DNA from: an uncultured Opitutia bacterium
GTDB lineage: Bacteria > Verrucomicrobiota > Verrucomicrobiia > Opitutales > Opitutaceae
NCBI GenBank assembly: GCA_903862955.1
Contig: CAIPAH010000024.1
Coordinates: 124,001 to 188,000, forward strand
Direction: 5' to 3'
DNA: 64,000 nt
Below the pieces are notes generated by a model. It was not told where the DNA came from. It did not search any database and saw only the letters and a program-made list of their open reading frames with translations. Shown here in pieces: positions 23,526-40,530 of the stretch (position 1 is its first letter; every line of letters starts with the position of its first letter). A program made the position numbers and the translations under genes.

Positions 23526-23547
23526 CCGGGGAAAACCGCGGGTTCGC

Positions 23548-25350: not shown

Positions 25351-25401
25351 GGGTAAAAAGGGGTGTCGGCCCGTCGCAGGCGGGGCAAGGCTGGAGGCGC
25401 G

Positions 25402-28400
25402 TTAGGCAGCGGGCGCGGGAGCCAGTCCGAGCTCCTTCAGGAATGTCGCCCAGCGCGGATCCGAATGGAGATTGTTGAGCATCGGATCGACCTGCAGGCC
25501 GATGATGCCGCCATCCCGCTGCCGGCGGGCCCGGGCGAGCCACTCGAAGGCGGCATCCTTTTCGCCGCGATAGGCGTAAACCGCGGCGATCTGATACGCG
25601 GCCGTGTCGGCATACTGGGCGACTAACCGGGCCAGGGTGGCATCTGACTCCGCCTTGCGGTGCTGCCCCCATTGGGCGGCCGCCACGATGAGCAACTCCG
25701 CCCACTCCCCCGCGTCGCCTTTCGCAGCCTTGGCGGCGTCTTCATAACGGCCCCGGAGCAGGTAGGCCAACCCGAGGCCCGCGTGGGCCCACGGCGCGTC
25801 GGGATTCAGCTCCAGCACCCGCGGATATTCCGCCTCGGCCTCGGCCAGCCGGCCCGTGGACGCGAATTGGTAGGCGAGGAAGGACCGCGCCCTCGAATTC
25901 ACCGGATCAACGTTGACCGCCTGCTGGTAGAGCGCCGTGCCCTGCGCGTTGTCGCCCAAGGCGCAGGCCAGGTTGCCCGCCGAGATGAGCAACGCGGGAT
26001 CCGCCGGCGCCAGCGCCCGGGCGGCCCGGAGCGACTCGCCCGCCCCCTTCCAATCAAAGTCGAGGTTCAGCTGGATCTCCGACTTGACCAGCAGGCTCTC
26101 CGCCGAGCCGGGCTCGAGCGCCTGCGCCCGGTCCACGGCCACCCGGGCCTTGGCCAGATGATCCTCAAATCCCGCCCGCTGAATGTCCGTGGAAAATTCA
26201 CAATACCAGATGTGCGTTCGCGCCAGACCCGCCCACGCGAGTGCGAAATCAGGATCCAGTTCCACCGCCCGCTGGAAAAACCCGAGCGCCTGGTCGATGT
26301 TCTTTTCCGAATGCCGGTTCACGAAATACCGGCCCTGCAGGTATTGCTGGTAGGCCTCCGGCACGCGTGTCCCACCCTTCACCGCGGCCTTGACGGCAGC
26401 GCTCTCCCCGTCGACGAGCTGGCCGCGCAGTTCACCCACGATCGCGAGCGCGAGCTGTTCCTGCAGCGCGAAGACGTCCTTCAGTTCGCGCGTGTAGCTC
26501 TCGGACCAGCGTTCCTCGCCGGTCGCGGCGCGGCTCAGGTGAACCGTGATACGCACCGTGTTGCCCGCCTTGCGGACGCTGCCCTCCACCACGTTGGCCA
26601 CGCCGAGTTTCTCCCCGATCTCCTGCGCGGTCGCGTTGCGGCCCTTGAATGAAAACGCCGACGTCCGCGCCGCCACGTGCAGCCCCGGCACTTTCTGCAG
26701 GACGGTCAGCAGCTCCTCGCTGATGCCGTCGGAGAAATACTCGTTCTCCTTGTCGTCGGAGAGATTGGCAAACGCCAGCACGGCGACGGACTTGGGATCC
26801 GGGTCGGTCGCAGCCGCCGCCGGCGCACCCGCGCCGCCGGCGTCCTCCCGCTCTAGTCGTTCCGCCTCGGCCAGCAGCCGGGCAAACTCGGGCTCCTCGC
26901 GGAGGGATTTCAAATCGGGGTCGTAGCGCAGGTCCGCCACCGGAAACATGACGGCGTGGCGCTGCGACTTGAGGGCGCGTTCGATGATGCCCAACGCCTC
27001 GGCGTGCTCACCCAGCGCCACACAGGCGTGGAAATACGCGCTGGCATCGCCCCCGTTGCCCTTGGCCGCCTGCCGCATCTGCCGGACGGCCGTGAACAAC
27101 TGGCGGGCGGCGGTGACATCACCGAGCTTGGCCAACAGCTCCAACCGCCCGCTGAGGAGATCGAGATTGGTCGGCGCGTCGACCAGGCGGGCGTCCACGA
27201 GTTTCAGCGCCGCGCGCCACTCGATGGCGGCGGCGTCGCGCCGTCCGGAAGAGGCCAGGGAGTTGCCCGCCAGCAGTCCCTTCGGTCCGTGGAACCAGCT
27301 GTCGTTGATCCAGTCGCGCGGGAACGCGTTCAGCAGGGCGAGCGCCTGGTCGTGCTCGCCGCGATACGTGTAAATCAGCCAGCCGAAGAAGCAGCCGCGA
27401 TCATCCTGCAGCGTGGACGAGGGGAGCTCCTCGATCAGGCGCTTCGACTTGTCCAGGTCGCCGTCGACCACCAGCGCCAGGTAAGCCGCAAGCAACCGCG
27501 CGCTGGTGAACGGCTCCTGGGCCAGGGCCGCGGTGATCGTGGCGTCCGCCTCCCTGACCCGGCCCATGAACCAGAGCGCCAGGCTCTTGCTGTAGAGGGC
27601 CAGCGGATCCCCGCCCGGCAACGCGTTGGCGCGATCGTAGAGTTCGAGGATTTCCTTTTCGCTGCCCGGCAGGTTGCGCAGCGTCGCCGCGAGTTCCCGG
27701 ATCAGCCGCTTGTCGTCGGGCCGCTCCTTCAGCAGGGCGCGCAGCGCCTGTTCCCGCTCCCGGTTATCCTTGACGCTCGTGCTGGTGAAGAGCGACGCCG
27801 CGGCGAAGCGGGCCTCATACGAGGTGGGATCGAGACGGAGGGCACGCTGGATCGCCACGCGCGCGAGCTCCCGACGCTCGTGGCCGGGATCCCAGCCCCG
27901 GGCGGCGTAGCGTTCATGGAGATAGGCATAGGCCGCCCAGACCTCGGCGTCGTCCGGGGACTTCGCGGCAGCCTGTTTCAAGATTTCCTCGGCCAGCACG
28001 AAGTCGTCCCGGCCGGAGTCCAGCGCGAGAAATATCTGCTGGGCCTTGGCCACGAGCCGGCGCGCCTCCGAGGGCCCGGCCGGCGCCGGCGCACTTGCCG
28101 CGGGCACGGCCGGGGGCGTCTCCCTCGCCGGGGGCTGACGCCACATCGGCTTCAGCAGGTAAAGCACGGCAAAGCCCAGGCCCACGAGCGTCCACGCCAC
28201 GCGCGTCCAGCCGCCGCGGCGGACCCGCGGGCGGCCGACCTTGGGGGCCGACTCCGCCTTGCCCGCATCGGCGGCCCACTCGTTGCGCAGGAGCTTCGCC
28301 ACGCGCGCGGCGAGCTCCGTCGGGGTCTCGTCGAGGCGGAGGCGCGTCCATTGCACCTCGCGGAACTTGTCCGGGACGCGCGCCGCGGCGTTGGGCACGT

Positions 28401-28713
28401 CGTCGATGATGATCGGGAACAGGAAGGCCGCGTCCTCCGCCATCAGGTGCGACCGGTCCACCGCCAGCTTCCATTCCAGGCGGAAATAGCCCTCCCCCCG
28501 TGCCTGCGTGTTGGCCGAGATGATCGGCACGAAGAGCGCGCACTCCTTGATCTGCCGCCGGATCTTCGCGTCCCACGCATCGCCGCCCCGCAGCTCGCTC
28601 TGGTCGAACCACACCTCCACGCCGGTCGCGCGGAGTGCGTCGCAAATCTGCTTTGCCGCCTCGGCATCCTGCGACGCGTAGGAAAGGAAGACGGCTTTGG
28701 CTGAATCGCTCAT
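25402..28713 (-). CDS. TIR-TM-TPR-TolB-like-TPR protein
   Basis: The 1103-residue protein has an N-terminal TIR domain (about 6-143). Visible parts are VFLSYASQDAEAA, the BB-loop-like VEVWFDQSELRGGDAWD, and GYFRLEW with Glu80 at the site that is catalytic in TIR NADases. A single membrane helix lies at about 172-188. Helical repeats fill about 215-620. A TolB-like N-terminal (FlgO-type) domain follows at about 641-760 (SVAVLAFANLSDD, YFSDGISEELL, VVEGSVRKAGN), and further TPRs at about 790-1090. If the TIR domain is cytoplasmic, the rest would be periplasmic. This is the last gene of a six-gene operon, 17 bases after the previous stop. It is the largest of four paralogues. Confidence 0.88.
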   Translation of the reverse strand: MSDSAKAVFLSYASQDAEAAKQICDALRATGVEVWFDQSELRGGDAWDAKIRRQIKECALFVPIISANTQARGEGYFRLEWKLAVDRSHLMAEDAAFLFPIIIDDVPNAAARVPDKFREVQWTRLRLDETPTELAARVAKLLRNEWAADAGKAESAPKVGRPRVRRGGWTRVAWTLVGLGFAVLYLLKPMWRQPPARETPPAVPAASAPAPAGPSEARRLVAKAQQIFLALDSGRDDFVLAEEILKQAAAKSPDDAEVWAAYAYLHERYAARGWDPGHERRELARVAIQRALRLDPTSYEARFAAASLFTSTSVKDNREREQALRALLKERPDDKRLIRELAATLRNLPGSEKEILELYDRANALPGGDPLALYSKSLALWFMGRVREADATITAALAQEPFTSARLLAAYLALVVDGDLDKSKRLIEELPSSTLQDDRGCFFGWLIYTYRGEHDQALALLNAFPRDWINDSWFHGPKGLLAGNSLASSGRRDAAAIEWRAALKLVDARLVDAPTNLDLLSGRLELLAKLGDVTAARQLFTAVRQMRQAAKGNGGDASAYFHACVALGEHAEALGIIERALKSQRHAVMFPVADLRYDPDLKSLREEPEFARLLAEAERLEREDAGGAGAPAAAATDPDPKSVAVLAFANLSDDKENEYFSDGISEELLTVLQKVPGLHVAARTSAFSFKGRNATAQEIGEKLGVANVVEGSVRKAGNTVRITVHLSRAATGEERWSESYTRELKDVFALQEQLALAIVGELRGQLVDGESAAVKAAVKGGTRVPEAYQQYLQGRYFVNRHSEKNIDQALGFFQRAVELDPDFALAWAGLARTHIWYCEFSTDIQRAGFEDHLAKARVAVDRAQALEPGSAESLLVKSEIQLNLDFDWKGAGESLRAARALAPADPALLISAGNLACALGDNAQGTALYQQAVNVDPVNSRARSFLAYQFASTGRLAEAEAEYPRVLELNPDAPWAHAGLGLAYLLRGRYEDAAKAAKGDAGEWAELLIVAAAQWGQHRKAESDATLARLVAQYADTAAYQIAAVYAYRGEKDAAFEWLARARRQRDGGIIGLQVDPMLNNLHSDPRWATFLKELGLAPAPAA

Positions 28714-28730
28714 CGCGTCGGAGGTCGCTT

Positions 28731-30644
28731 TCAGCCCTCGGCCGGGCCGAATTTTGGAGTGAGCCAGGTCAGCTGGTCATCGGCCAGGTTCATCTTGCGC
28801 AGGAACGGCTCCCAGCGGGCGTCGCGGCGCAGGCTGTCGAGGAGCGGGTCACACTTCGTCAGGCACATCCCGGAGTCGCGCTGCTCGAAAGCCTTCTCCA
28901 ACCAGGCGAAGCCCGCGTCCACTTCCCCGCGGAAGGCATGCACCTGCGCCACTTGGAAGGCCGCGTGGCCGCCGTGCTGCGCCTTCAGCGCCTCCAGTTC
29001 CACTTCGGACTCGGCCGCCCGGCCCTGGGCATGGCGGGTCATGGCCAGGTTCGTCGAGCGGGACCAGCCCACCGGCATGGCCTCGGCGGTCATCGCGGCG
29101 GCATCCACGCGGCCTTGCAGCAACTGGGCGATGCCGAGAAACGACCGGCTGCGCGTCCCCAGCGGGCTGAGCGCAAGGACCTGCTCCGCCGCCTTCTCCA
29201 TTTCCGCGTACCGGCGGGCGTACGACAGGCTTCGAATCACGGTGTAGCCGGAAAAGTAGTTGATCGGGTCCAGCGCCGCCGCCTGGCGGGACAGGGCAAT
29301 GGCCCGCCCAAACCGGCCCGTCATGCCCGCCAGATGGGCCTGCAGGCTCACGGCGTCCACGTCGCCGGGGGCCAGCTCAACCGCGCGCTCCAGCTCCGCT
29401 GCCGCGCGCGGCCAGTCCCAGTCATACAACAGCAGGACAAACGCGAGGGCCACGTGGCCCTTGGCCAGCCCGGGGTCCAGCTCGATGGCCTTCGCCGCCG
29501 CCTCGCGGGCAAGCTTGTTGCCGAGATCGACGGCTTGGACGCCGGAGCCGGCCGCCAGCCCGTAGGCCATTGCGAGCCAGGCCCAGGTCAGCGCCGAATC
29601 CGGATCAATCGCCAGCGACTCCTTGTAACAGGCGATCGCCTTCACCGGATCATCCAGGCCTTCCCGGTTGAACGCCGCCCGGCCTTCCAGGAACAGCCGG
29701 TAGGCGGCCGGGTTGACCTCGCGGACCACCCCGGCCGGGGCACTCAGCTTGAGCGAGAGGTTCTTTGCCACCAGACCCGCAATCTCGTCCTGCACCGCGA
29801 AGATGTCCTTCAGGTCGCGCGTGAACGTGTCCGACCACACGTGGAAGCCGTCCGCCGCCTTGATGAGCTGCGCGGTGATCCGCACCCGTTCGCCGGACTT
29901 GCGCACGCTGCCCTCGACGACATACGCCACGCCGAGTTGCCGCGCGATCTCGGCGACGGGCGTGTCCTTCTTCTTGAAATGAAACGCCGAGGTGCGCGCG
30001 GTGACCTTCAGGCCCGGCACCCGGACCAGCACGTTGATCAATTCCTCGCTGATGCCGTCGGAAAAAAATTCGTTCTCCGCGTCGTTGCTGAGGTTCGCGA
30101 AGGCCAGCACCGCGACCGACTTGACGTCAACCGCCGCCGGCGTGGCAGTCACAGGAGCACGGGCCTCCCGGCCCGTGACCTCCAACCCCAATGGCCGGGG
30201 AACCCGTGCTCCATCCTCCCCCGCCAGCAGCCGCCGCACATGCTCCGCCACCGCGGCGGACGTCTCGCCACCGGGCAGGCGGGTCCATTGCACGGCGAGG
30301 AAGGAGTCGGGGACGTCCGCGCCGGCATCCGGCGTCTGGTCCACGCACACGGGAAAAACAAACGCCCGGTTGCGGCCCATCAGGTGCGTGCGCTGGTCGG
30401 CGAGCCGCCACTCCAGCCGGAAATACCCTTCCGCCCGCGCCTGCGTGCTCGCCGAGATGATCGGCATGAAGAGCGCGCATTCCTTCACCTGCCGGCGGAT
30501 CTTCTGGTCCCACGCATCGCCGCCGCGCAGCTCGCTCTGGTCAAACCACACCTCGACGCCCGCGACCCGCAGTGCGTCACAAATGCGCCGGGCCGCGCCC
30601 GCGTCCTGCGAGGCATACGAGAGGAAAACAGCCTTATCGGTCAT
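28731..30644 (-). CDS. TIR-TolB-like-TPR protein without membrane helix
   Basis: The 637-residue protein has a TIR domain (about 3-140) with VFLSYASQDAGAA, VEVWFDQSELRGGDAWD and GYFRLEW (Glu78). A short linker (about 143-170) follows, then a TolB-like domain (about 174-295: SVAVLAFANLSND, FFSDGISEELI, YVVEGSVRKSG). TPRs run from about 310 to the end. Unlike its paralogues it has no membrane segment between TIR and TolB-like parts; the linker is instead encoded by a palindromic repeat (30154-30212). It is probably soluble. It is the fifth gene in the operon, 9 bases after the previous stop. The TIR domain is closely similar to that of the next gene, suggesting tandem duplication. Confidence 0.88.
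   Translation of the reverse strand: MTDKAVFLSYASQDAGAARRICDALRVAGVEVWFDQSELRGGDAWDQKIRRQVKECALFMPIISASTQARAEGYFRLEWRLADQRTHLMGRNRAFVFPVCVDQTPDAGADVPDSFLAVQWTRLPGGETSAAVAEHVRRLLAGEDGARVPRPLGLEVTGREARAPVTATPAAVDVKSVAVLAFANLSNDAENEFFSDGISEELINVLVRVPGLKVTARTSAFHFKKKDTPVAEIARQLGVAYVVEGSVRKSGERVRITAQLIKAADGFHVWSDTFTRDLKDIFAVQDEIAGLVAKNLSLKLSAPAGVVREVNPAAYRLFLEGRAAFNREGLDDPVKAIACYKESLAIDPDSALTWAWLAMAYGLAAGSGVQAVDLGNKLAREAAAKAIELDPGLAKGHVALAFVLLLYDWDWPRAAAELERAVELAPGDVDAVSLQAHLAGMTGRFGRAIALSRQAAALDPINYFSGYTVIRSLSYARRYAEMEKAAEQVLALSPLGTRSRSFLGIAQLLQGRVDAAAMTAEAMPVGWSRSTNLAMTRHAQGRAAESEVELEALKAQHGGHAAFQVAQVHAFRGEVDAGFAWLEKAFEQRDSGMCLTKCDPLLDSLRRDARWEPFLRKMNLADDQLTWLTPKFGPAEG
30154..30212. repeat. REP-like palindrome inside a coding sequence
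   Basis: The outer arms 30154-30163 (ggagcacggg) and 30203-30212 (cccgtgctcc) are exact complements. The symmetry continues inward with gaps, so arms of about 20 bases match at about 17 positions. The element is in frame within the TIR-TolB-TPR gene. It encodes about 20 residues of the linker (GARVPRPLGL to TGREARAP). Confidence 0.8.
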
Positions 30645-30653
30645 GTCCGCAGC

Positions 30654-31796
30654 TCAGTTTGATTCCGCCGGCCCCACGGTGAACCCCAGCGCGCGTTCCA
30701 CCGACGCGCGCAGCTCCTGGCCCGTCAGCGGATTCCGGAACGTCGCGCGATCGAGCGGCACGCGCCACGGCTCCAGCCGGCCCACCAGCACGGGGAAACG
30801 ATTGACGGCCTCCGCCCGCCATTTCGCGGCCGCGCCGTCCACCTCCCAGGAATGCCGGGAGTAAATGATGAACTTCGTATCGGGATTCATTGTCCCGACA
30901 TAGCCGAGGAAGGCCACGAGCTTGTTGTCTGCCAGCGGGTAGATGTCGTCCGCCATGCTGTCCGGAAAGGTATAAAACGCCGAGCGGTGGATCACGATCA
31001 ACGCCGGGTGCTCTTTCACGACTTCTGCTTCCCGCTTCCACGTGGAGCTCGTGGCCTCCTTCATCAGCGTCACCGGCAGGTCCCGCAGGACTTCCGTGAT
31101 GTCGTCGGCGTTCGTGCCCCCGCTCTTGAGCGTCACCGGGTCATACACGCGGTTGGGATAGGAGGAATCCATCAGCACGATGACCGGCGCCCCCGCCGTT
31201 CCGGGCGCATGGGGGTGGCGTGTCTTCCAGATCGCCACGGCGGCGACTATGATCGTAGTCGCGACCACCAGGGCCCACAGGCTCTTGGGTGCCGGCCGCG
31301 GCCGCGCGGAATCACCGCGGCCGGTCGCGGGCTTCCGGCCGTCAGTGGCGGGACCCGCCAGGGGCGCCGCCAGCAAGCGCTGCACCTGCCGGACGAATTC
31401 CGGCGCCGCCACGCCGTGCGCGGCGCGCGTCCACTGCACTTTCAAGAACTCCTCGGGCACCACGGCGGCGGCCTGGGGCGTGTCATCGATCCCCACCGGC
31501 ACCAAAAATGCCGCCCCGCCCGCCATGTCGTGGGTGCGCTCGACCGCCAGCTTCCACTCGCGGCGGAAATAGCCCTCGCGCCGCGCCTGGGTGTTCGCCG
31601 ACACGATGGGCAGGAACAAGGCGCATTCCCGGATCTGGGTCCGGATCTTCTGGTCCCAGGCATCGCCGCCGCGCAGCTCGTTCTCGTCAAACCACACCTC
31701 AACGCCGAACGCCCGCAGCGCGTCCGCAATCCGCCGCGCCGCGTCCGAGTCCTCGCGCGCGTAACTCAGGAAAACGGCGGGAGTGGAATCGCTCAT
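30654..31796 (-). CDS. TIR-TM protein with an unrecognised C-terminal domain
   Basis: The 380-residue protein has a TIR domain (about 6-145) with VFLSYAREDSDAA, VEVWFDENELRGGDAWD and GYFRREW (Glu80). A polar linker is followed by one membrane helix (about 172-190) and a domain (about 203-375) that I do not recognise. That domain begins VIVLMDSSYPNRVYDP and includes TNADDITEVLRDLPV, PALIVIHRSAFYTF and TKFIIYSRHSWEV. The alternating hydrophobic strands suggest an alpha/beta fold, predicted to be outside the cytoplasm if TIR is inside. The four-base overlap of its ATG with the stop of the upstream TIR gene indicates coupled translation. This is the only TIR paralogue of the cluster without TPRs. 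Confidence 0.85.
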   Translation of the reverse strand: MSDSTPAVFLSYAREDSDAARRIADALRAFGVEVWFDENELRGGDAWDQKIRTQIRECALFLPIVSANTQARREGYFRREWKLAVERTHDMAGGAAFLVPVGIDDTPQAAAVVPEEFLKVQWTRAAHGVAAPEFVRQVQRLLAAPLAGPATDGRKPATGRGDSARPRPAPKSLWALVVATTIIVAAVAIWKTRHPHAPGTAGAPVIVLMDSSYPNRVYDPVTLKSGGTNADDITEVLRDLPVTLMKEATSSTWKREAEVVKEHPALIVIHRSAFYTFPDSMADDIYPLADNKLVAFLGYVGTMNPDTKFIIYSRHSWEVDGAAAKWRAEAVNRFPVLVGRLEPWRVPLDRATFRNPLTGQELRASVERALGFTVGPAESN

Positions 31797-34168
31797 TCGC
31801 GGAACAGCGGGGCATTGTTCTTCTCGTCGTGGACGAGCGCCTCGAAACGCGGATCGCCGTGGAGCGGCCACCAGCCGGGACTGATCCGGGCGTTGTAAAT
31901 GTTCTCCCCGAACGGCGTGCGCAGCGACCGGGCCAGCTCCGCCAGCGCGCGGTCCTTGTCGCCCGTCCACGCCAGCACCTGCGCGTAGTTGACACTCCCC
32001 GGCGGGCCGGCGACGGCATCCTGCGATTCGGGGACGAGGTCCGCCGAGATCTTGGCGCAGCGCAGTGCCTCCGCCTTGTTGCCGAGCAGTGCGTGGGCGT
32101 CGCTCAGGATCCCCCAGGAAGTGGCGGAGGGCTTGCGCTCCACCTCGGCCCGGCCCTCGGGCACGGCTGAGGCGGCCCGCTCCCGCGCGGCGGTTTGGTC
32201 GCCATGCGCCCAGAGGACGAAGGCGACTCCGACATCCTGCGACCAGTGGGGCTCGTTAAAGCCTTCAAAATACCGCAGCTGACGGTTGAGGCGGATGGCG
32301 GTCTCCCAGTCGCCGATGGCGCGCGCCAGGAGCGTGCTGCCGTAGACAAGATCGGGAGTGGGCTTCGGCAGGGAGGCGAACCGAGCGATCAGCTCCTGCG
32401 CCTCCTTCGTGGAACCGCGGGCCGCGATGGGAATGATGGCCAGTTGTCCCTGGTCGTAAGCCGAGTCGGGATAGAGCGCCAGGATCCGGCGCTGCACCAC
32501 CTCCGCCTCGTCGTAAAGGTCCAGACCCATGCACAACTGAAAGAGCGTGCGGGCGTAACGGAGGTTGCGGGGCTCGAGTTCCACGGCGTGCCGCAGCTCC
32601 CTGAGCGCCTCACCCCAGCGGGCTTGGCGGCGGTGGATGAAGCCCAGCGAGCCGGAAACCGCGGCGTCATTGGGCCGCAGCACCGCGAGCCGCTGGTATT
32701 GCTCCGATGCCCGCGTGAAGTCCCGGTAGCCGTAGTAGTAATAGTCGCCCAGCATCTCGATGACCTCGGGATCGTCGGGCGCGAGGCGAACCGCGGTGTC
32801 GATCGCTGTCTTGGCCTGCGCCAGTCGCTCAGCGGAGTGATCGACCTCATCGAAATAAGTCTGCGCATGCGCCGAGCCCAGCTGGGCCCAGGCGTCCGCG
32901 AATTTTGGATCCAGCCGGACGGCCTCCTCGAACAAGGGAATGGACGCGCCCTCGCCGTTCAGTTCGCTCAGGCGGATTTCCCGCGCCTTCGCATACGCGT
33001 CGTAGGCCGCCAAATTCTCCGTCGGCCGGCGGTCGATCAGAGACTTCTCCTGCGGCGTGAGCGCCGCCGACAGCGCGCCGGCAATCGCCTGCGCCAGTTC
33101 GGCCTGGATGGCAAAAATGTCCGTGAGGTCGCGGTCGTAGGCCTTCGCCCAGACGTGCTCGTCAGTGGCGGCGTGGATCAGCTGGCCGGTCACCCGCACC
33201 CGGTTGCCCGAGCGCCGCACGCTGCCCTCCAAAATGTACGCGACGCCCAGCTCCTGCGCGATCTGGCGGATCGATTTGGTCGTGTTGCGGTACTGCATCA
33301 TCGACGTGCGCGAGACGACCCGCAGCTCGCGCACCAGCGCCAGGTTCGTCAGCACGTCCTCCTGCATGCCGTCGGTGAAGAACGCGCTGTCCTTCTCCTC
33401 GCTCATGTTCTCGAACGGCAGCACCGCGATGGACTTCTCCGAGACGGGCGCCGCCGCCGGCGTTGCCGGGACGGTGGGCGCCGCCGGATTGTCCGCAGTG
33501 GCCTTTTCCGCAGTCTTGGCGGCGATCTGCTGCGCCGAGGCGACCAGCGCGGCCACTTCCTGCGGGCTGCGGTGCGGCCGCAGGGCCACCACCGCGACCA
33601 GCCCGAGCACCACGATCGCCAGGCCGATCAGCGAAAATTTCAGCAGCGAGCTGAATGTCGACGGCCGGGCCGCTGCGGCGGCTTCCGGTCGTGCGGCGGC
33701 GTTCGCCTGCGGCGCGCGCGCGGCCGACTGCCGCGGGTTTTCGAGGAGCCGCTTGACCTGCATCACAAACTCGGGCGTCGGCATGCCGGCCGGGAGCCGG
33801 GTCCATTGGAACCGCATGAACTCCCCCGGCACCGTCGCCGCCGACTCCAGCGTGCCGTCGATCACGATCGGCATGACGAAGGCCAGGCCCTCGGCCATGT
33901 CGTGGGTGCGGTCCACGGCGATTTTCCATTCCCGCCGAAAGTAGCCCTCGCCCCGCGACTCGGTCGTCGCGGAGATGATGGGCAGGAAGAGCGCGCAGCT
34001 GCGGATCTGGTTGCGGATTTTAACGTCCCACGTGTCCCCGCCGCGCAGCTCGTTCTGGTCGAACCACACCTCGACGCCGAAGCCCCGCAAGGCATCCGCG
34101 ATCCGGCGCGCCGCCTCCGTGTCCTCACGGGCATAACTCAGGAAGACGGCTTTGGTTGGTTCGCTCAT
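31793..34168 (-). CDS. TIR-TM-TolB-like-TPR protein
   Basis: The 791-residue protein has a TIR domain (about 6-143) with VFLSYAREDTEAA, VEVWFDQNELRGGDTWD and GYFRREW (Glu80). One membrane helix (about 176-196) follows, then an Ala-rich linker and a TolB-like domain (about 244-365: SIAVLPFENMSEEKD, FFTDGMQEDVLTNL, YILEGSVRRSGN). TPRs cover about 370-780. The plan resembles ToxR/CadC-type and adenylate-cyclase proteins, in which a cytoplasmic output domain is tied through one helix to a periplasmic TolB-like/TPR part; here the output is TIR. Spacing to the upstream STAND gene is 7 bases. Ligand and partner are unknown. Confidence 0.88.
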   Translation of the reverse strand: MSEPTKAVFLSYAREDTEAARRIADALRGFGVEVWFDQNELRGGDTWDVKIRNQIRSCALFLPIISATTESRGEGYFRREWKIAVDRTHDMAEGLAFVMPIVIDGTLESAATVPGEFMRFQWTRLPAGMPTPEFVMQVKRLLENPRQSAARAPQANAAARPEAAAAARPSTFSSLLKFSLIGLAIVVLGLVAVVALRPHRSPQEVAALVASAQQIAAKTAEKATADNPAAPTVPATPAAAPVSEKSIAVLPFENMSEEKDSAFFTDGMQEDVLTNLALVRELRVVSRTSMMQYRNTTKSIRQIAQELGVAYILEGSVRRSGNRVRVTGQLIHAATDEHVWAKAYDRDLTDIFAIQAELAQAIAGALSAALTPQEKSLIDRRPTENLAAYDAYAKAREIRLSELNGEGASIPLFEEAVRLDPKFADAWAQLGSAHAQTYFDEVDHSAERLAQAKTAIDTAVRLAPDDPEVIEMLGDYYYYGYRDFTRASEQYQRLAVLRPNDAAVSGSLGFIHRRQARWGEALRELRHAVELEPRNLRYARTLFQLCMGLDLYDEAEVVQRRILALYPDSAYDQGQLAIIPIAARGSTKEAQELIARFASLPKPTPDLVYGSTLLARAIGDWETAIRLNRQLRYFEGFNEPHWSQDVGVAFVLWAHGDQTAARERAASAVPEGRAEVERKPSATSWGILSDAHALLGNKAEALRCAKISADLVPESQDAVAGPPGSVNYAQVLAWTGDKDRALAELARSLRTPFGENIYNARISPGWWPLHGDPRFEALVHDEKNNAPLFRE

Positions 34169-34175
34169 GTTCGAC

Positions 34176-37100
34176 TCAGATTCCGGCCGAGACCGGCTCG
34201 CGCTGCGCGTCGGCCACCGATTGCATCAGTTCCTTGGCGGTGATCAGCTGCTTCGCCTCGAAAGTCAGTCCGCCAAGCACGGCCGACGCCTCGGCCAGCA
34301 GCTCCGCGCGCCGCGCGCGGCCCGCGGCATCGGTGGGCTGGGCGCGGGCGAGCTGATAAAGTATGCGGCCAAAATCCAGCCGGAAGTCCGTGGAAGCCGC
34401 GCCTTGGTTCATTTGCGTCCGGAAGTAGGCATCCGCCGTCGACAGCGCCGTCAGCGCTTCGGCGCGCTGCCCCGCAGCGAGGAGGGCCTGGCCCAGGCGG
34501 GCTTGGGCCTTGGCGGTGTAAAGCTCGGTCCCTATCCTGCCTAGGCTGCCAATCTGGGGCTGCGCCAACACCCGGCGGGCGGTGCTCACGGCTTCCTCGA
34601 CCCGCCCGATCCGCAGGGCGGACTCGACCTGATAAAATTGCGCTTCACGCAGGAGATCCTCCCGGAACTGCTTGTTGCCCTCGTTCACCCGCTTGATCTG
34701 GGCCAGGCGCTCCTGGAGCGCGAGCGCCCGAGTGTGCAGCGTCGCGTAGTCGCCACTCGCCGCCAGAAGCTCGGCGTCGGCCATCAGCTCGTCCTCGCTG
34801 GTCCCCAAGTCCATAACCTCCTGGTCAAAGCCCGATTGCTTCTCGAATAATTTGATCGTCCGGCGTGATTCCTCCACTGCGGCCCGGGCGGCGCTGAAAT
34901 TGCCACGCTGGGCCTCGATGGTCGCCAGCGTCTGCCAGGAGTTGAAGATGAAATAGTTCACGCCCGATTTGTTGCGCGGATCATGCTCCAGCGCCACCGC
35001 CTCGCGCAGCTTGGCCGTTCCCGCCGCGATCCGGCCCTGTCGCAGGGCGTTCTCACCCTGGTTCATGAGCGCGGTCGTGTAGTTGTACCACGCGCTGGTG
35101 TCGGCCGGATTGAAGCGGATGTAATTCGCCGCCGCCTCCGTCGCTTTCGCGTAGCTGACTTCCGTCTTCGCCAGGTCATGACGGTCAGCCGCCGCAAAGC
35201 CGATGGCGTTGGCGGAAAAATACCGGTTCTTCATCGCCCGCAGGTCGCCGGGGCGCTGCTCGAGGACCTTTTCGGAAATGTCGCTCACCACCGCCGCCAG
35301 GCGCTCCGCCTCGGCGGGCTGGCCCAGCTTGAGATACATGCGCGACTCCGTGTCGGTCACGTCGCCGTAGATCGAGGCCGCCGTCAGGTCGGACTGGTCC
35401 AGTGCCCCAAGCTCGGCGAGGAGTTTGCGCGACTCCTCGCAATCCACGATCCCCTCCTCCGGCTTCGAGGCATGGGCGAGATACTGCAGCATGTCGGCGA
35501 GCGCGAGCTTGGTGCTGCGGGTCGCCCGGCCGGAAGCCACGATCGGCCGCAGCAAGCCGGTGGCGGTCTCGAGGTCCACCCGGGTCTTGCCGATCGATCC
35601 CAACGTGATCTGGGAGAAATACGCGAGGGCGAGCGCCGTGGAGACTTCGTCGCTGTGATCTCCCGCGGCCCGCAGGTCCTCGAAGATCTTCTGCGCTTGC
35701 CGGCCCACCGCCTTGGCCTCGGCGCCCTGACCGGCATCGTTGAGCGCCGACGCCTTCCGCATCAATGCCATGCCCCGGAAAATCTTCGTCTGCGGCGTCA
35801 TCAGCTCGGCCGGCAGCCCGTCGTAGTAGGCGACGGCCTTGTCCGCCAGCTTGCCCACGATCTCGCCGCGCCCGGTGGGCTTCAGTTCCTCGTAAAAATC
35901 CTCCAGCAGAAACGCGATCAGCTTCTCCGACTCGGTGCGGGCGCGCTCGGCCAGCCGCTGGGACGCCTGCGCCTGGGCGTCGGCGGCGCGGGCGCGGCGC
36001 AGGGTGATGTAGCCAAAGACCGCGCTGGCCGCGGCGGCCACCATCAGCACGGCGCAGACCGCCGCCACCATGCGGGCGCGAACGAGGGAACGGCGCGTGA
36101 CTTCCTCCTGGGCGCGCGTCGCGGCCAGCTGGCGCTCGACGGCGGCCTTGGCCTCGCGCTCGTGGCGGACGTCGCGGCTGGCCTTCACCACCGAGCAAAG
36201 CACGTCGTGCATCAGCTCGATGCGGCGGATATCGAGGCGCTCCTCGACGCGCAGGAGGCGGCGGTTCACCAACGTGTCCAAGGCCGTGGGATTCGCCCCG
36301 GCGGCCGAGAGGGACTTCTGCGCGCGCTCTAGCGCGATGTTTTCTCGGTAGCCGGACTCGGTCAGCAGTTCCTCCTCGATAAACCGGCGCACGCCTTCGG
36401 GTTGGTCGCCCACCGCGCGCTCGTAAAATTCCGAGAGAATCGTGTCACGCGTGCCCGCCAACAGGTCCGCGGAAATCTCCGCCTGGCCGCGCGCCAGCCG
36501 GGTGTTGTTCAGCTCGCGGCAGATGAGGCTCAGCAGCGACGGCTCAACCTCGGCGTGCGCCAGGTCCGCGCCGCCCGAGACAAACCGCACGATCGCCGCG
36601 GCCACGGCCTCGGTCACGAGCGTGGGCGCCGGCCCGCGCACGGCCGCGATGGCCTGAACGCCGGTCATGCGCGCCAGGCGCATGCGGTTCTGCGTGACGG
36701 ACGGCATGTCGCTCTTCAATGCCTCGAGATTGGCGAGGTAGTCCTCGCGCAACGAAATGAGGATGCGGTAATCCGCCCGCGCGAAGTCGAACCGCGCGGC
36801 ATCGGCTTCGTCGCGGTCAATGCGCGCCTCGAGTGACGCGGGCGGGCGGTTTTCCACGAGGTCCGCCAGGTCGGCCAGGAATTCACGGGCGCGCCGCCGG
36901 CCGGCGTCGTCGGACTGCGCCAGCGTGAAGATCTCCTCGAACTGGTCGAAGATCAGGATCGGGATCAGCGTCCGGCCGGTCGCGTCCTTCAGCACGTCAT
37001 CGCGATGGTGGAGGAATTCCCACAGCGTCTCGCCCGTGACGGCCGAGCCGGTCTGCGTCCAGCTGCCGGCGGCCTCGGTGGCGCGAAACACCGCGCGCTT

Positions 37101-37400
37101 GATCTGGTCGGCGGGTGGCGGCGCATCCGGGTGATAATCGAGGCGCACGTAAACCGGGCAGAACCCGTCGGGCCGCAGCCGCGGCACGAGGCCCGCCTGC
37201 AGGATGGACGTCTTGCCTAGGCCGGACTGGCCAAAAAGGACCGTGAGGAGCTTGCGCTGCACGCGCCGCGCGAGTTCGGCGCCCTCCTCTTCCCGGCCGT
37301 GAAAGAAGCTCCGCGTCTCCTCGGTAAACGACGTCAGCCCTAACCATGGATTCTGGGCATCCACGGTGGCACCGTTGAGCGGGGTTGAGTCGGGCTTCAT
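34176..37400 (-). CDS. STAND-type P-loop NTPase with membrane helix and helical-repeat tail
   Basis: The 1074-residue protein starts with NPWLGLTSFTEETRSFFHGRE, the usual opening of nSTAND1-type NTPases. Walker A is GQSGLGKTS (57-65) and Walker B is ILIFDQFEE (148-156). The conserved ISLREDYLANL and a winged-helix-like end (RRLLRVEERLDIRRIELMHDVL, about 380-401) follow. After a charged coiled segment (about 405-440) there is one membrane helix (about 444-466) and a long helical-repeat, TPR-like region (about 480-1070). STAND proteins are ligand-triggered switches that oligomerise on ATP binding. No nuclease or other effector domain is visible in this chain, so the adjacent TIR proteins are the likely outputs. 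Its ATG overlaps the stop of the SIR2-like/TIR gene by 4 bases. Confidence 0.88.
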   Translation of the reverse strand: MKPDSTPLNGATVDAQNPWLGLTSFTEETRSFFHGREEEGAELARRVQRKLLTVLFGQSGLGKTSILQAGLVPRLRPDGFCPVYVRLDYHPDAPPPADQIKRAVFRATEAAGSWTQTGSAVTGETLWEFLHHRDDVLKDATGRTLIPILIFDQFEEIFTLAQSDDAGRRRAREFLADLADLVENRPPASLEARIDRDEADAARFDFARADYRILISLREDYLANLEALKSDMPSVTQNRMRLARMTGVQAIAAVRGPAPTLVTEAVAAAIVRFVSGGADLAHAEVEPSLLSLICRELNNTRLARGQAEISADLLAGTRDTILSEFYERAVGDQPEGVRRFIEEELLTESGYRENIALERAQKSLSAAGANPTALDTLVNRRLLRVEERLDIRRIELMHDVLCSVVKASRDVRHEREAKAAVERQLAATRAQEEVTRRSLVRARMVAAVCAVLMVAAAASAVFGYITLRRARAADAQAQASQRLAERARTESEKLIAFLLEDFYEELKPTGRGEIVGKLADKAVAYYDGLPAELMTPQTKIFRGMALMRKASALNDAGQGAEAKAVGRQAQKIFEDLRAAGDHSDEVSTALALAYFSQITLGSIGKTRVDLETATGLLRPIVASGRATRSTKLALADMLQYLAHASKPEEGIVDCEESRKLLAELGALDQSDLTAASIYGDVTDTESRMYLKLGQPAEAERLAAVVSDISEKVLEQRPGDLRAMKNRYFSANAIGFAAADRHDLAKTEVSYAKATEAAANYIRFNPADTSAWYNYTTALMNQGENALRQGRIAAGTAKLREAVALEHDPRNKSGVNYFIFNSWQTLATIEAQRGNFSAARAAVEESRRTIKLFEKQSGFDQEVMDLGTSEDELMADAELLAASGDYATLHTRALALQERLAQIKRVNEGNKQFREDLLREAQFYQVESALRIGRVEEAVSTARRVLAQPQIGSLGRIGTELYTAKAQARLGQALLAAGQRAEALTALSTADAYFRTQMNQGAASTDFRLDFGRILYQLARAQPTDAAGRARRAELLAEASAVLGGLTFEAKQLITAKELMQSVADAQREPVSAGI

Positions 37401-38797
37401 GCGCGTTGCGAGTTGAACAAGTCCTGGAGCCGGCGGGTGAACTCCGTGGGCGGCTCACCGGCGGGCAGGCGCGCAAAGTGCATCGCCTTGAATTTCTCCG
37501 GCACGACCGCCGCGGCCTCCGTGGTGTCGTCGATGCAGATGGGCAGGATGAACACGGCGCCGTCCGCCATGCCGCGCGTCCGGTCCACGGCATAATTCCA
37601 CTCGCGGCGGAAGTAGCCTTCGTGCCGCCGCTGCGTCGTGGCTGACACGATAGGCAGGAAGAACGAGCACCGCGCGATGTTGCCGCGAATTTTCCGGTCG
37701 TAATCGTCGCCGCTTTCGAGGCGGTCGAGGTCGAACCAGGTGGTGAGCCCGGCCGCGTCGAGGGACGCCTTCAGCTTCTGCACCGCAGGCAGGTCCTCGC
37801 GGGCGTAGCTGATGAAGATCGCATTTTCGGGCATCTCGCGCGCCGGGGGCAGGAAACGCACCGGTGGGGCCGAGGCGCTGCCGGCCGCGGCCGCCTGCTT
37901 CGCATGCCGCGCCATCCACCGCCGGTGCAGCTCGTCCACGAACACCGCCGCGCCGGAGAACATCCGCGTGCGGATGCTCACCTGTTGGAGGAAGGAAACC
38001 AGCCGCACGTCGCGCATCGTGTGGTCGTCGGCAAAGATTTCCCCGACGTCGCGGGGGTCGGACAGCCGCCGGCGCTTCGTCATGCGCAGGAACAGCCGCG
38101 CCAACCAGTTGGAGAAATCGCTCCCGATCACGAGCAGGTGATTGTGCTCCAGCGCGTGGAAGAGCTTCTCCGGCGTCAGGTGCTCGCTCTGCAGTGCGCA
38201 GATGAACTCGAGCATGTCCTCGTCCGAGATCACGTAGGTCGGCGACGCCGACAGCCGGCCAAGCAAATGATAAACGACGGGACGCTGCAGGTCGTCGCGC
38301 GCCACCGGCAGGTCCGCCACGCGATTGGGCGCGTAGGCGATCACCTCCGTGTTGGCCGTGCCGCCGAAGCGTTCGAGGTTCACGGCCTGCTCCATCAGCG
38401 GGTCGAAGGTCGTCGAAACGTAGAGGTTGAAATCCGTGATCTGCGCGAGCTGGCGCAGCGGCAGGGGCGGTGCAAAGGCCGCCTCGCGCATGATCGTGCG
38501 CAGCCGCGTGTAGGCCTCCTCGCGGCGGCCGTGCGCCGTAAGGTAGCCGCAGACCACGTCGTTCAGCTGCAGCGGCTGCGGCAGCGCGGAGATGTCGACG
38601 TTCAGTCGCGCCGCCAGCTTCTCCGCCAGCCATTCGTAGAGCGCCCGGGGGCCCGATTCCGTCTCCACCTTGAGCAACTCGGGCCCGATGATGGGAATCA
38701 CCCGCTTCTCCTCGATGTAATTGAGCAGGTCTTCCCAGGCGTCATCGTCAAACGACGTGGCCATGGTTCCAGACGGGTCCGGCAGCTCGGTATTCAT
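37397..38797 (-). CDS. Degenerate SIR2-like domain fused to a TIR domain
   Basis: With ATG 38797 the protein is 466 residues; ATG 38800 and ATG 38764 are alternatives. Residues about 20-245 resemble SIR2_2-like domains: VIPIIGPELL takes the glycine-loop place, LYVSTTFDPLMEQAV the T-T-N-x-D-x-L-x-E place, VVYHLLG the K-L-H-G place, and LLVIGSDFSNW the I-G-x-S-x-x-D-W place. The catalytic Asn and His positions are thus Phe131 and Leu179. A TIR domain fills about 326-460 (AIFISYAREDLPA, TWFDLDRLESGDDYD, GYFRREW with Glu399). I infer that the TIR domain is the enzyme and SIR2 a binding module. It is the first gene of the operon, divergent from the SLOG-4TM gene. Confidence 0.82.
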   Translation of the reverse strand: MNTELPDPSGTMATSFDDDAWEDLLNYIEEKRVIPIIGPELLKVETESGPRALYEWLAEKLAARLNVDISALPQPLQLNDVVCGYLTAHGRREEAYTRLRTIMREAAFAPPLPLRQLAQITDFNLYVSTTFDPLMEQAVNLERFGGTANTEVIAYAPNRVADLPVARDDLQRPVVYHLLGRLSASPTYVISDEDMLEFICALQSEHLTPEKLFHALEHNHLLVIGSDFSNWLARLFLRMTKRRRLSDPRDVGEIFADDHTMRDVRLVSFLQQVSIRTRMFSGAAVFVDELHRRWMARHAKQAAAAGSASAPPVRFLPPAREMPENAIFISYAREDLPAVQKLKASLDAAGLTTWFDLDRLESGDDYDRKIRGNIARCSFFLPIVSATTQRRHEGYFRREWNYAVDRTRGMADGAVFILPICIDDTTEAAAVVPEKFKAMHFARLPAGEPPTEFTRRLQDLFNSQRA

Positions 38798-38976
38798 CAT
38801 TGTTGTGGGAGGCAAAGACCCGCTTATGCAGGCGAGGCCAAATGACTCGCGAATCAATGCCGTTCCCCCGGTCCTCTGGCCAGCTGATTCTACCGGAAAA
38901 ATCGCGTGTCCTGCCATCCGCCAAGGGCTTAGCGATTGACAGCCCCCTCCGGACCGCCGTCCCATCACCGCCCTCG
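38798..38976. promoter_or_regulatory. Divergent promoter region of the TIR operon and SLOG-4TM gene
   Basis: These 179 bases are the only gap able to hold promoters for both the six-gene minus-strand operon and the plus-strand SLOG gene. A TTGACA match lies at 38936-38941 on the plus strand, but I see no good -10 box 16-18 bases after it. No operator-like repeat was found. A shared regulatory region would link the two units. Confidence 0.45.
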
Positions 38977-40458
38977 ATGAGCACCGCATCCGTGCTGCCC
39001 CTGTTCCATGTCGTCGGATTTTCCGGCCATCGGCAGCTCGCCGACCAGGCGGCGGTCGCAAAGACGATCGGGGAAGTCCTCGCCTCTCTCCGCCACGAGG
39101 CCCCCGGCGAGTGGATTGCCCTCTCGTCCCTCGCCATCGGCAGCGACCAGGTGTTCGTCGAGCAGGCGCGCGAACTCGGACTTTCGTGGCACGCCATCCT
39201 GCCCCTCCCGCGGGCGGAATTCGCCAAGGACTTCTCGCCCGCCGAATGGAACACCGTCGAGCAAACCCTCGCCCATGCCGAGCACGTCCGCGTGATCACC
39301 GAGAACGGCACGCGCGAGGACGCCTATTTGGATTGCGGCATGGAAACCGTGAACAGCGCCGACGTCCTCCTCGCCATCTGGGACGGCCAGCCCGCGCGCG
39401 GCAAGGGCGGCACGGCCGATGTCGTCGAATACGCCAAGTCCACGGGCAAGCCGGTGATCATCATCGACGCCACCACGCTCGCCGTGCGGAAGGAAAACTG
39501 GGACCGGCTGATGCTGAAGGATCACAGCCTCGCCTACCTCAACCGGTTGCCCGAGTCGTCCGGCGGCTGGGGCGACAACCCGTTCAAGGCGCCGGACTAC
39601 ATCTTCGCCTTCCAGCAAAAATGCGACTTCGCCGCCAGCCACGGCGCGCCGCAATTCCGCCGGCTCATCGTGTCCACCGTGCTGCTGCACGTCGTCGCCA
39701 CGCTCGTCGCCGCCGCCGGCCTGGCGTTCGGGCTGCACGTCCTGGCGCTCCCGTGGATCAAGTTCCTCTGCCTTGCGAGCGCCTTGGGCGTGGCCGTCGT
39801 GCTGCGCCACCACACGCACTCCAACCACAGCTGGGTGCGCAGCCGGCTCGCCGCGGAGTTCTGCCGCTCCGCGCTGGCGACCTGGGGCCTGCCGCGGGCC
39901 GCGCCGCTTTTCCAGGACCTCGACCTGCCGGGCGTGTATGGGCTGACGCGCTCCCTGCACATCCTGCACAGCCGCTCGGCGAACGCCCAGCCGGTGCCGA
40001 TGGAGGAGTTCAAGCGCATCTACCTCGAAAAACGCATCGACGACCAGCTCGCCTACTATCGGCGCCAGGAAGGCCGCGCGCTGCCGCTGTTCAAGCGGCT
40101 CAAGCTGGGCTTCTGGATCGCCACGATCCTCGCGCTCGCGAGCACCGCCGCGTATGCCGTGTGCGAGACGTGGCAATTGGGCGCGCCGGAGTGGATCGAG
40201 AACTCAGTGTTCTATTTCCTGCCCATCTCGCTGCCCGTCGTGGCGGCGTCCCTCATCTCGCTCATCTCAATCAACGACCTGCAGCGCCGGGTGGCGCGCT
40301 ACCGCGAGATGCACGCGATGCTCGCCGCCAGCCGCGGCCAGGTGGTGTTCTGCCAGACGTGGAACAGCCTCGAGCGCATCGTGCTCAAGACCGAGCGCGC
40401 CCTGCTCCAGGAAGTGCTCGAGTGGCACTCGATCACGAGTTTCGCGGAGTCACACTGA
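38977..40458 (+). CDS. SLOG nucleotide-binding domain fused to four-helix SLATT-like membrane domain
   Basis: The 493-residue protein has a SLOG/LSDAT-type Rossmannoid domain (about 9-166) with VVGFSGHRQL, LSSLAIGSDQVFVEQA, AILPLPRAEFAKDFS, VNSADVLLAIWDG and GKGGTADVVEYAKSTGKPV. Hydrophobic helices lie at about 230-253, 257-276, 379-396 and 410-431. Between them is the SLATT/DUF4231-like YLEKRIDDQLAYYRRQ, and the C-terminus has ERIVLKTERALLQEVLEW. SLOG domains bind NAD- or nucleotide-derived ligands, and SLATT domains are predicted pore-forming effectors in nucleotide-signalled immunity. ATG 38977 is chosen because the SLOG strand begins soon after. It is divergent from the TIR/STAND operon. 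Confidence 0.82.
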   Translation: MSTASVLPLFHVVGFSGHRQLADQAAVAKTIGEVLASLRHEAPGEWIALSSLAIGSDQVFVEQARELGLSWHAILPLPRAEFAKDFSPAEWNTVEQTLAHAEHVRVITENGTREDAYLDCGMETVNSADVLLAIWDGQPARGKGGTADVVEYAKSTGKPVIIIDATTLAVRKENWDRLMLKDHSLAYLNRLPESSGGWGDNPFKAPDYIFAFQQKCDFAASHGAPQFRRLIVSTVLLHVVATLVAAAGLAFGLHVLALPWIKFLCLASALGVAVVLRHHTHSNHSWVRSRLAAEFCRSALATWGLPRAAPLFQDLDLPGVYGLTRSLHILHSRSANAQPVPMEEFKRIYLEKRIDDQLAYYRRQEGRALPLFKRLKLGFWIATILALASTAAYAVCETWQLGAPEWIENSVFYFLPISLPVVAASLISLISINDLQRRVARYREMHAMLAASRGQVVFCQTWNSLERIVLKTERALLQEVLEWHSITSFAESH

Positions 40459-40471
40459 CCAGGGATTGGCC

Positions 40472-40496
40472 CACGGAACACACGGAAGACACGGAA
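40472..40496. repeat. Three 9-base-period copies of cacggaa
   Basis: The word cacggaa starts at 40472, 40481 and 40490, giving an exact 9-base period in the 72-base gap between the convergent ends of the SLOG-4TM and GGDEF genes. No function is evident. Confidence 0.6.
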
Positions 40497-40530
40497 GGAA
40501 AAACTTCCCGATCCGGTCTGCGTTGGGTGG

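What the first reader, a model, noticed from the sequence alone, without database searches (positions are those of the whole stretch)
31793..34168. TIR as cytoplasmic output of a TolB-like/TPR transmembrane receptor
The order TIR - one membrane helix - TolB-like - TPR copies that of ToxR/CadC-like regulators and of adenylate cyclases with TM-TolB-like-TPR parts, but with TIR as output domain. It suggests that an envelope signal controls NAD-based signalling. Topology is inferred from a single predicted helix.
Basis: inference. Interest (0 to 1): 0.65.

Follow-up and report, generated by a model that had tools for sequence, protein, structure and literature searches.

The report
CadC-like membrane receptor with TIR output
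A little-studied bacterium appears to carry a membrane receptor whose outer part resembles a known bacterial stress sensor while its inner part is a TIR immune-signalling domain, a layout (not an ancestry) like that of animal Toll-like receptors.

Summary
The ORF at 31793-34168 (-) encodes TIR (1-145), a strong membrane helix (178-196), a TolB/FlgO-like domain (239-375) and TPRs. The modelled ectodomain's best structural match is the crystallised periplasmic domain of CadC (Z 19.2, 297 residues); the TIR matches SPARTA TIRs and keeps the catalytic-type Glu (169 of 169 family TIRs). A helix is present in 120 of 130 TIR-TolB rows, with more positive charge on the TIR side and Cys-poorer ectodomains. 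TIR-in, sensor-out is likely, but not universal: paralogue P0002 in the same operon has no helix. In this genome the same sensor also carries a kinase. The gene lies in a six-gene TIR/SIR2/nSTAND operon, divergent from a SLOG-SLATT gene, in a 17-kb segment missing from the site in 3 of 3 sister genomes examined. Best reading: an accessory, conflict-type locus where membrane TIR receptors make an NAD-derived signal read by SLOG-SLATT. Signal, NADase activity and defence are untested. New variant of a known kind.

The parts
31793..34168 (-). P0001, TIR-TM-TolB-like-TPR protein, 791 aa (the finding)
33734..34168 (-). TIR domain, residues 1-145
   Evidence: Pfam TIR_2 E=3.6e-18; SPARTA TIR Z 17.1
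33929..33931 (-). codon of Glu80, at the position of the TIR catalytic Glu (position recalled; aligns with the Glu of the KKEW stretch of PDB 3h16)
   Evidence: invariant in 169 of 169 distinct TIRs; alignments
33581..33637 (-). predicted transmembrane helix, residues 178-196
   Evidence: Kyte-Doolittle 2.93; helix 179-196 in the AF2 model, at low pLDDT of about 40-63
33503..33565 (-). juxtamembrane helix, residues 202-222
   Evidence: AF2 model, pLDDT about 75-80 for 201-220
33044..33454 (-). TolB/FlgO-like alpha-beta domain, residues 239-375
   Evidence: TolB Z 14.9 and CadC Z 19.2
31814..33013 (-). TPR solenoid, residues about 386-785
25402..28713 (-). P0003, TIR-(weaker helix)-TPR-TolB-like-TPR, 1103 aa
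28731..30644 (-). P0002, TIR-TolB-like-TPR without a membrane helix (26-residue linker), 637 aa
30654..31796 (-). P0004, TIR-TM-unknown C-terminal domain, 380 aa
34176..37400 (-). P0006, nSTAND1 NTPase-TM-helical repeat protein, 1074 aa
   Evidence: Pfam nSTAND1 E=1.4e-31; helix 444-462
37397..38800 (-). P0005, SIR2-like (SIR2_2)-TIR protein; start codon unsure
38977..40458 (+). P0007, SLOG-SLATT membrane protein, divergent from the operon; start codon unsure
   Evidence: SLATT_1 below the curated cut-offs; SLOG fold, YpsA Z 18.7
23466..40528 (.). 17-kb segment (TIR cluster, SLOG-SLATT gene and a DUF885 gene) absent from the matching site in three sister genomes

Best explanation
P0001 is a single-pass inner-membrane receptor with the layout of CadC but a different output: cytoplasmic N-terminal TIR, one membrane helix, periplasmic TolB-like domain plus TPR solenoid. 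An envelope event (ligand, phage or damage; unknown) binds or rearranges the TolB-like/TPR part, changes receptor association through the helix and the juxtamembrane helix, and brings TIR domains together so that they cleave NAD+ (Glu80). The product is most likely read by the SLOG domain of the divergent SLOG-SLATT membrane protein, with the SIR2-TIR, nSTAND-TM and other TIR proteins of the operon as co-sensors or amplifiers, ending in membrane permeabilisation, NAD loss or dormancy. Shown by computation: gene, domains, CadC-like fold of the modelled ectodomain, conserved catalytic-type Glu, family-wide helix and its charge bias, association with SLOG-SLATT, accessory site. Inferred: insertion and orientation in the membrane, NADase activity, the SLOG link, the role in conflict. 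Unknown: the signal.
For: Domains. AF2 model mean pLDDT 89, pTM 0.71; best match the CadC periplasmic domain, 3lya, Z 19.2, rmsd 3.9, 297 aligned, model 240-562 (Foldseek TM-score by target 0.67-0.68). TIR part: SPARTA Z 17.1, RUN1 Z 15.7; Glu invariant in 169 of 169 distinct TIRs. Helix in 120 of 130 rows, split by linker length (19-41 residues without, 49 or more with); P0001's half of the tree, 61 rows, all with helix. Mean K+R 3.10 on the TIR side against 2.28 on the other; TIR side higher in 67, lower in 24, tied in 25 of 116. Ectodomain Cys 0.36% with helix (73 proteins) against 0.97% without (8), p=1e-4. A folded N-terminal domain before the only helix ordinarily gives N-in/C-out (general knowledge). 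Same module with kinase output in the same genome and with adenylate cyclase in rhizobia. A TIR gene lies in the fetched stretch of 22 of 40 SLOG-SLATT places, while a P0001 search of this genome finds TIR matches in this cluster only. The 17-kb segment is absent from 3 of 3 sister sites examined.
Against: P0001's own 15-residue flanks tie in K+R (2 and 2; net +2 against +1), so the charge argument is a family one, on sequences that are not independent. P0002 (two of the ten helix-less rows) and eight other rows lack the helix, and the label changes at least 3 times on the tree, so the sensor can evidently work in the cytoplasm. The Cys contrast rests on few helix-less lineages (3 independent pairs, not significant); P0002 itself, at 0.64%, is not far from P0001's 0.36%. 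AF2 gives the membrane helix low confidence. SLOG-SLATT has no TIR in the fetched stretch in 18 of 40 places, and its SLOG is closer to YpsA and DprA than to ThsA (Z 18.7 and 14.9 against 9.0). Only the TIR portions match defence models. No homologue in the phage collection at E<=1e-5.
Confidence: 0.6

Rival explanations
1. Membrane-tethered intracellular sensor: the helix only anchors the protein (or is re-entrant) and TolB-like/TPR stays in the cytoplasm as presumably in P0002 and in soluble TolB-TPR cyclases; it senses an intracellular partner.
For: P0002 and eight further rows lack the helix; cyclase L173 has the same module and no strong helix; P0001, P0002 and P0003 also match the HilA/EilA model (E 0.0061, 1.2e-5, 2e-8), a regulator without a membrane helix (recalled).
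Against: One strong helix after a folded N-terminal domain normally places the C-terminus outside; charge bias; ectodomains Cys-poor (<0.6%) in 96 of 107 helix-bearing but 2 of 8 helix-less members; CadC as best structural match.
Confidence: 0.15
2. Non-enzymatic scaffold: the TIR serves as an assembly platform (as in TLR/MyD88) and recruits SIR2-TIR, nSTAND or other TIR proteins of the operon rather than cleaving NAD+ itself. (Not exclusive of the membrane topology.)
For: Five TIR proteins in one operon; the SIR2-TIR partner carries its own candidate NADase domain.
Against: Glu and the following Trp invariant in 169 of 169 TIRs, which a scaffold would not obviously need; closest folds include the TIRs of SPARTA, RUN1 and SARM1, known NADases (recalled).
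Confidence: 0.15
3. Physiological envelope-stress or nutrient receptor with no role in conflict: the TIR product tunes metabolism, as kinases and cyclases with the same sensor would tune expression. (Not exclusive of the membrane topology.)
For: The same sensor module occurs with kinase and cyclase outputs; CadC senses pH and cadaverine (PMC9214523, passages).
Against: Patchy distribution and tandem arrays; accessory site; SIR2, nSTAND and SLOG-SLATT company.
Confidence: 0.2

Closest known systems
CadC (E. coli membrane-integrated one-component regulator)
   Same: N-terminal output, one membrane helix, C-terminal periplasmic alpha-beta domain plus TPR-like helices; best structural match of P0001 residues 240-562 (Z 19.2)
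   Different: Output is a DNA-binding HTH in CadC, TIR here; about 15% identity; P0001 has a longer TPR solenoid
Transmembrane Hanks-type kinases with periplasmic TPRs, e.g. PknS of Xanthomonas citri (PMC13147305, passages)
   Same: N-terminal cytoplasmic enzyme, helix, periplasmic TPR region; this genome has a kinase-TM-TolB-TPR paralogue, 40% identical to P0001 216-789
   Different: Kinase output; no TolB-like domain is named for PknS in that paper (term search)
Adenylate/guanylate cyclases with TolB-like/TPR part (rhizobial plasmids)
   Same: Same sensor module, up to 36% identity over 246-628; L174 has a helix before it
   Different: Cyclase output; L173 has no strong helix
Animal Toll-like receptors
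   Same: Extracytoplasmic solenoid, one helix, cytoplasmic TIR (layout as stated in PMC7075850 and PMC8635717, passages)
   Different: Opposite N/C order, TPR plus TolB-like instead of LRR, enzyme-type TIR; no common ancestry of the receptor claimed
Thoeris (ThsB TIR + ThsA SLOG effector)
   Same: TIR gene(s) beside a SLOG-bearing effector; ThsA is among the structural matches of P0007 (Z 9.0)
   Different: SLOG nearer to YpsA/DprA than ThsA; effector domain is SLATT-like, not SIR2 or macro; TIRs are predicted membrane receptors; ThsB models match only the TIR domain, weakly
TIR-SLATT conflict neighbourhoods predicted by Burroughs, Aravind and colleagues (PMC9503650, PMC7159879, passages)
   Same: TIR genes adjacent to SLATT membrane effectors, predicted to respond to nucleotide or ADPr derivatives
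   Different: Here SLATT is fused to SLOG, and TIRs carry a membrane helix and a CadC-like ectodomain; that layout is not in the passages seen
SPARTA TIR-APAZ
   Same: Closest TIR structures (Z up to 17.1)
   Different: No APAZ or Argonaute match in these proteins

Membership tests
TIR domain (TIR_2), NADase type | TIR fold with the catalytic Glu | tested here: met
   Pfam E=3.6e-18; fold Z 17.1 to SPARTA TIR; Glu80 in 169 of 169 distinct TIRs
TIR domain (TIR_2), NADase type | NAD+ cleavage | not testable with these tools
   needs an assay
CadC-type one-component membrane regulators | alpha-beta plus TPR sensor after one helix | tested here: met
   Z 19.2, 297 residues; helix
CadC-type one-component membrane regulators | N-terminal DNA-binding HTH output | tested here: not met
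   N-terminus is TIR; so it works like, but is not, a CadC regulator
TolB/FlgO/LpoB-like domain superfamily | profile or fold match | tested here: met
   FlgO 41 of 61, TolB_N 19 of 61 members at E<=0.1, P0001 itself below curated cut-offs; TolB fold Z 14.9
TolB (Tol-Pal) | C-terminal beta-propeller | tested here: not met
   C-terminal part is helical TPR
Thoeris | effector that matches a PADLOC ThsA profile | tested here: not met
   no PADLOC family for P0007 at E<=0.01; SLOG nearer YpsA/DprA, ThsA at Z 9.0
SLOG-SLATT effectors | SLOG domain in P0007 | tested here: met
   YpsA Z 18.7, DprA 14.9, ShosA 14.4
SLOG-SLATT effectors | SLATT membrane domain in P0007 | tested here: inconclusive
   full-length SLATT_1 match but below the curated cut-offs: 24.9 of 26.3 bits, 35.2 of 41
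Known anti-phage systems (PADLOC) | match beyond the TIR portion of a model | tested here: not met
   P0001-P0005 match TIR parts only (P0005 also some residues before its TIR); P0006 and P0007 match nothing at E<=0.01
Single-pass N-in receptor | TIR in cytoplasm, sensor in periplasm | tested here: inconclusive
   consistent helix, charge and Cys evidence, no experiment

The most novel reading that the evidence does not exclude
Opitutaceae evolved a family of Toll-receptor-like membrane immune receptors: a fixed cytoplasmic TIR-linker-helix stalk joined to exchangeable periplasmic sensors (TolB-TPR, TPR-TolB-TPR, TPR only, unknown domains), expanded in tandem arrays and carried in accessory clusters, which detect an attack at the envelope and fire an NAD-derived messenger into a SLOG-gated SLATT pore. 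Bacterial TIR immunity would then have outside-in receptors, not only cytosolic sensors.
Probability: 0.35. Interest if true: 0.82.

Novelty: new variant of a known kind. Interest (0 to 1): 0.6.

Why it matters
Bacterial TIR proteins with tested roles sense intracellular cues (recalled). A membrane TIR receptor with a sensor of known, crystallised type gives a concrete way to ask whether bacteria trigger NAD-based death or signalling from the envelope, before or during phage entry or predator contact. It also shows one sensor module (TolB-like plus TPR) shuffled among HTH, kinase, cyclase and TIR outputs, and an independent arrival at the Toll-like layout. None of the listings or passages seen describes this architecture (open-licence library only; one search listed 20 of 35 papers).

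Tried and rejected
Thoeris membership: not supported for P0007; the logic may still be similar. Sequence-only link of the TolB-like domain to CadC: the PDB profile search gave weak hits (CcmE, an uncharacterised protein, flagellin, FlgO-domain proteins and others) and not CadC; the link rests on fold and on a weak CadC family hit of P0003 (E=9.3e-5). Phage relatives: none at E<=1e-5. Plasmids: none of 536 matching records covers 80% of the protein; the 20 rows listed match from residue 242 onward, i.e. sensor only. Outside the family in the phylum sample (288 genomes, E<=1e-40), five genomes match, from residue 119 or later, i.e. without TIR. Four Gammaproteobacteria MAG contigs have TIR relatives (L104, L109, L110, L112); L104 and L112 are under 4 kb and may be binning errors. 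Sigma-70 promoter and terminator patterns between the divergent genes: none. Shared words of 9 or more bases within 100 bases or so of the two ends of the 17-kb segment: none, so no mobile-element type is claimed. Independent-pairs test of Cys against helix: too few pairs. The comparison of TIR with ectodomain Cys (ectodomain lower in 106 of 114) is not used as main evidence because the TIR has a Cys that is invariant in 40 of 40 aligned sequences.

Rows dropped before counts: incomplete ORFs in the architecture tally; TIR domains of 60 bits or less or about 100 residues or less; 49 of 130 rows (long linker, incomplete or short ectodomain); 16 of 56 non-window SLOG-SLATT places, mostly fragments or weak matches, not fetched, and several fetched stretches there are short because their contigs end. 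The divergent-partner listing was confused by antisense ORFs in this GC-rich DNA and is not counted. The list is cut, so '29 of 150 genomes' (own genome included, one with in-frame stops) is a lower bound counted by eye. The family code f1 is taken to be Opitutaceae from matching contig lengths and record titles; this is an inference.
Full report
What is there. The ORF at 31793-34168 (-) is a gene of 791 codons. Pfam finds TIR_2 at 8-125 (E=3.6e-18) and many TPR hits. The only strong hydrophobic segment is 178-196, mean Kyte-Doolittle 2.93. Residues 239-375 are a TolB/FlgO-like domain: weak in the single protein, but 41 of 61 family members match FlgO and 19 of 61 match TolB_N at E<=0.1, with 5 LpoB, 5 FlgT_M and 3 GNA1162-like hits; these are envelope families (recalled). 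An AlphaFold2 model from 40 sequences has mean pLDDT 89 and pTM 0.71, with a helix at 179-196 (low pLDDT) and another at 202-222 between TIR and sensor.

Structure of the parts. Of 961 chains realigned, the top four are the periplasmic domain of CadC (Z 18.9-19.2, rmsd 3.9-4.0, 297-303 residues, model 237-564); then SPARTA TIRs (Z up to 17.1), plant RUN1 TIR (15.7) and TolB (14.9) among others, many of them unrelated TPR proteins. CadC is described as HTH, one helix, then a periplasmic alpha-beta sandwich and a TPR domain; ToxR's periplasmic domain lacks that organisation (PMC9214523, passages).

Topology. Family sampling: 73 loci from one scan of the genome collection and 29 new loci from a 150-genome sample of the window's family. 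Of 130 TIR...TolB rows, 120 have a helix in the linker and 10 do not, and the two classes separate by linker length, 49 residues or more against 19-41. The helix sits 32 residues (sd 6) after the TIR profile in 105 of 113 TolB-bearing proteins and at nearly the same offset (31.5, sd 6.6) in 24 of 29 other TIR proteins. In 116 distinct flank pairs, K+R is higher on the TIR side in 67, lower in 24, tied in 25 (p=7e-6, sequences not independent); P0001 itself ties. Ectodomain Cys is 0.36% in 73 helix-bearing against 0.97% in 8 helix-less proteins (p=1e-4); below 0.6% in 96 of 107 against 2 of 8. Only 3 independent pairs exist, so this is supportive, not proof. A lone helix after a folded N-terminal domain normally gives N-in, C-out (general knowledge). 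I take TIR-in, sensor-out as likely (about 0.8).

Exception. In the FastTree of 119 distinct rows (midpoint root) the half that holds P0001 (61 rows) is entirely helix-bearing; the 9 helix-less rows lie in the other half and need 4 changes, 3 of them forced by starred branches. One helix-less protein, P0002, is encoded two genes downstream of P0001. So the sensor module seems to be used on both sides of the membrane, as in rhizobial cyclases: L174 has a helix before the TolB-like domain, L173 has no strong one.

Exchangeable output. The best match to P0001 elsewhere in this genome is a Pkinase-TM-TolB-TPR protein (L002:1474-4170, -; 40% identity over P0001 216-789; Pkinase E=1.5e-18). A transmembrane kinase with a periplasmic TPR region, PknS, is required for a type VI secretion system that protects against amoebae, and its authors suggest that the periplasmic part restrains the kinase without stimulus (PMC13147305, abstract in the listing and passages). 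This is the nearest tested precedent I found for how such an ectodomain could gate a cytoplasmic enzyme.

The locus. P0001 is third in a compact operon on the - strand: SIR2_2-TIR, nSTAND1-TM, P0001, TIR-TM-unknown (P0004), TIR-TolB-TPR (P0002), TIR-TPR-TolB-TPR (P0003); neighbours overlap by 4 bases or lie 7, 9 and 17 bases apart. Divergent from it is a SLOG-SLATT protein, P0007. Starting from P0007 instead of TIR, P0007 relatives occur in 47 of 150 family genomes, own genome included; of 40 places fetched (of 56 outside the window), 22 have a TIR gene in the fetched stretch, up to about 9 kb either side, and 18 do not. SLOG-SLATT, SIR2-TIR and nSTAND recur together in L134, L137, L144 (nSTAND cut by the contig end), L146 and L147, with a TIR-TM-TolB gene in the first two only. 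SLATT is predicted to be a nucleotide-signal-gated membrane effector, and TIR-SLATT neighbourhoods have been noted (PMC9503650 and PMC7159879, passages).

Accessory character. In G059 the window's flanks meet: window 23465 corresponds to position 10348 and window 40529 to 10354 of L175. In G085 and G154 the right edge is the same (40529, 40532) and the left alignment ends about 900 bases earlier (22575, 22566), so that at least 23466-40528 is missing there too (3 of 3 sister genomes examined, of 11). The DUF885 gene inside the segment lies on another contig in all three. G085 has a related cluster on another contig (L137). Family tallies: a P0001 match at E<=0.001 in 112 of 150 genomes, many of them to TPR or sensor only; at least 29 of 150 have one match running from residue 10 or before to 330 or beyond (truncated list, counted by eye). 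One stretch holds eight TIR and/or TolB genes (L079).

Mechanism and how sure. Shown by computation: domains, modelled fold, conserved Glu, family-wide helix, gene neighbourhood, empty site. Inferred: membrane orientation (0.8), NAD+ cleavage by the TIR (0.65), SLOG-SLATT as reader of the product (0.4), role in conflict with phage or predators (0.45). The signal is unknown. The most likely working order is: envelope cue, receptor rearrangement, TIR assembly, NAD-derived messenger, SLOG-SLATT and SIR2 effects.

Novelty. A survey of TIR domains uses the word 'transmembrane' for metazoan receptors only and describes large bacterial TIR-TPR proteins, mainly actinobacterial, without it (PMC7075850, passages found by term); a review calls bacterial TIR proteins poorly characterised (PMC8635717, passages); a preprint on amoeba TirC infers a membrane tether acquired by the eukaryote (PMC13142454, passages). 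None of the listings or passages seen in searches for TIR with TolB, TPR, periplasm, ectodomain, Verrucomicrobia or Opitutus describes this layout, within an open-licence library. All parts are known; the combination is a new variant of a known kind: a CadC-like receptor with a TIR output.

Noticed in passing
window 34176-37400: P0006 repeats the same layout with another output: nSTAND1 NTPase, one helix (444-462), C-terminal helical repeats; it may be a second membrane receptor and lies beside SIR2-TIR in other genomes too (L134, L137, L144, L146, L147).
   Followed up: partly
window 30654-31796: P0004 is TIR-TM followed by about 185 residues with no Pfam match and no Cys; TIR proteins whose C-termini have no Pfam match at E<=0.001 also occur in L092, L094 and L105.
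   Followed up: partly
window 23548-25350: A DUF885 protein gene lies inside the segment missing from sister sites, although its orthologues sit elsewhere in those genomes; it seems to have moved with the TIR cluster.
   Followed up: partly
L002:1474-4170 (G000 contig C12): Kinase-TM-TolB-TPR gene next to an ORF that reads like an ECF-type sigma factor (L002:4271-4735, -), a kinase-sigma pairing like PknS-EcfK; the sigma assignment is by eye.
   Followed up: no
L079 and L105 (CANJIU010000018.1): Tandem array of eight TIR and/or TolB genes in L079, suggesting local duplication and diversification.
   Followed up: no
L109, L110, L112: Gammaproteobacteria MAG contigs with TIR-TolB relatives; L112 also has SIR2-TIR. 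Transfer or binning error not resolved.
   Followed up: no
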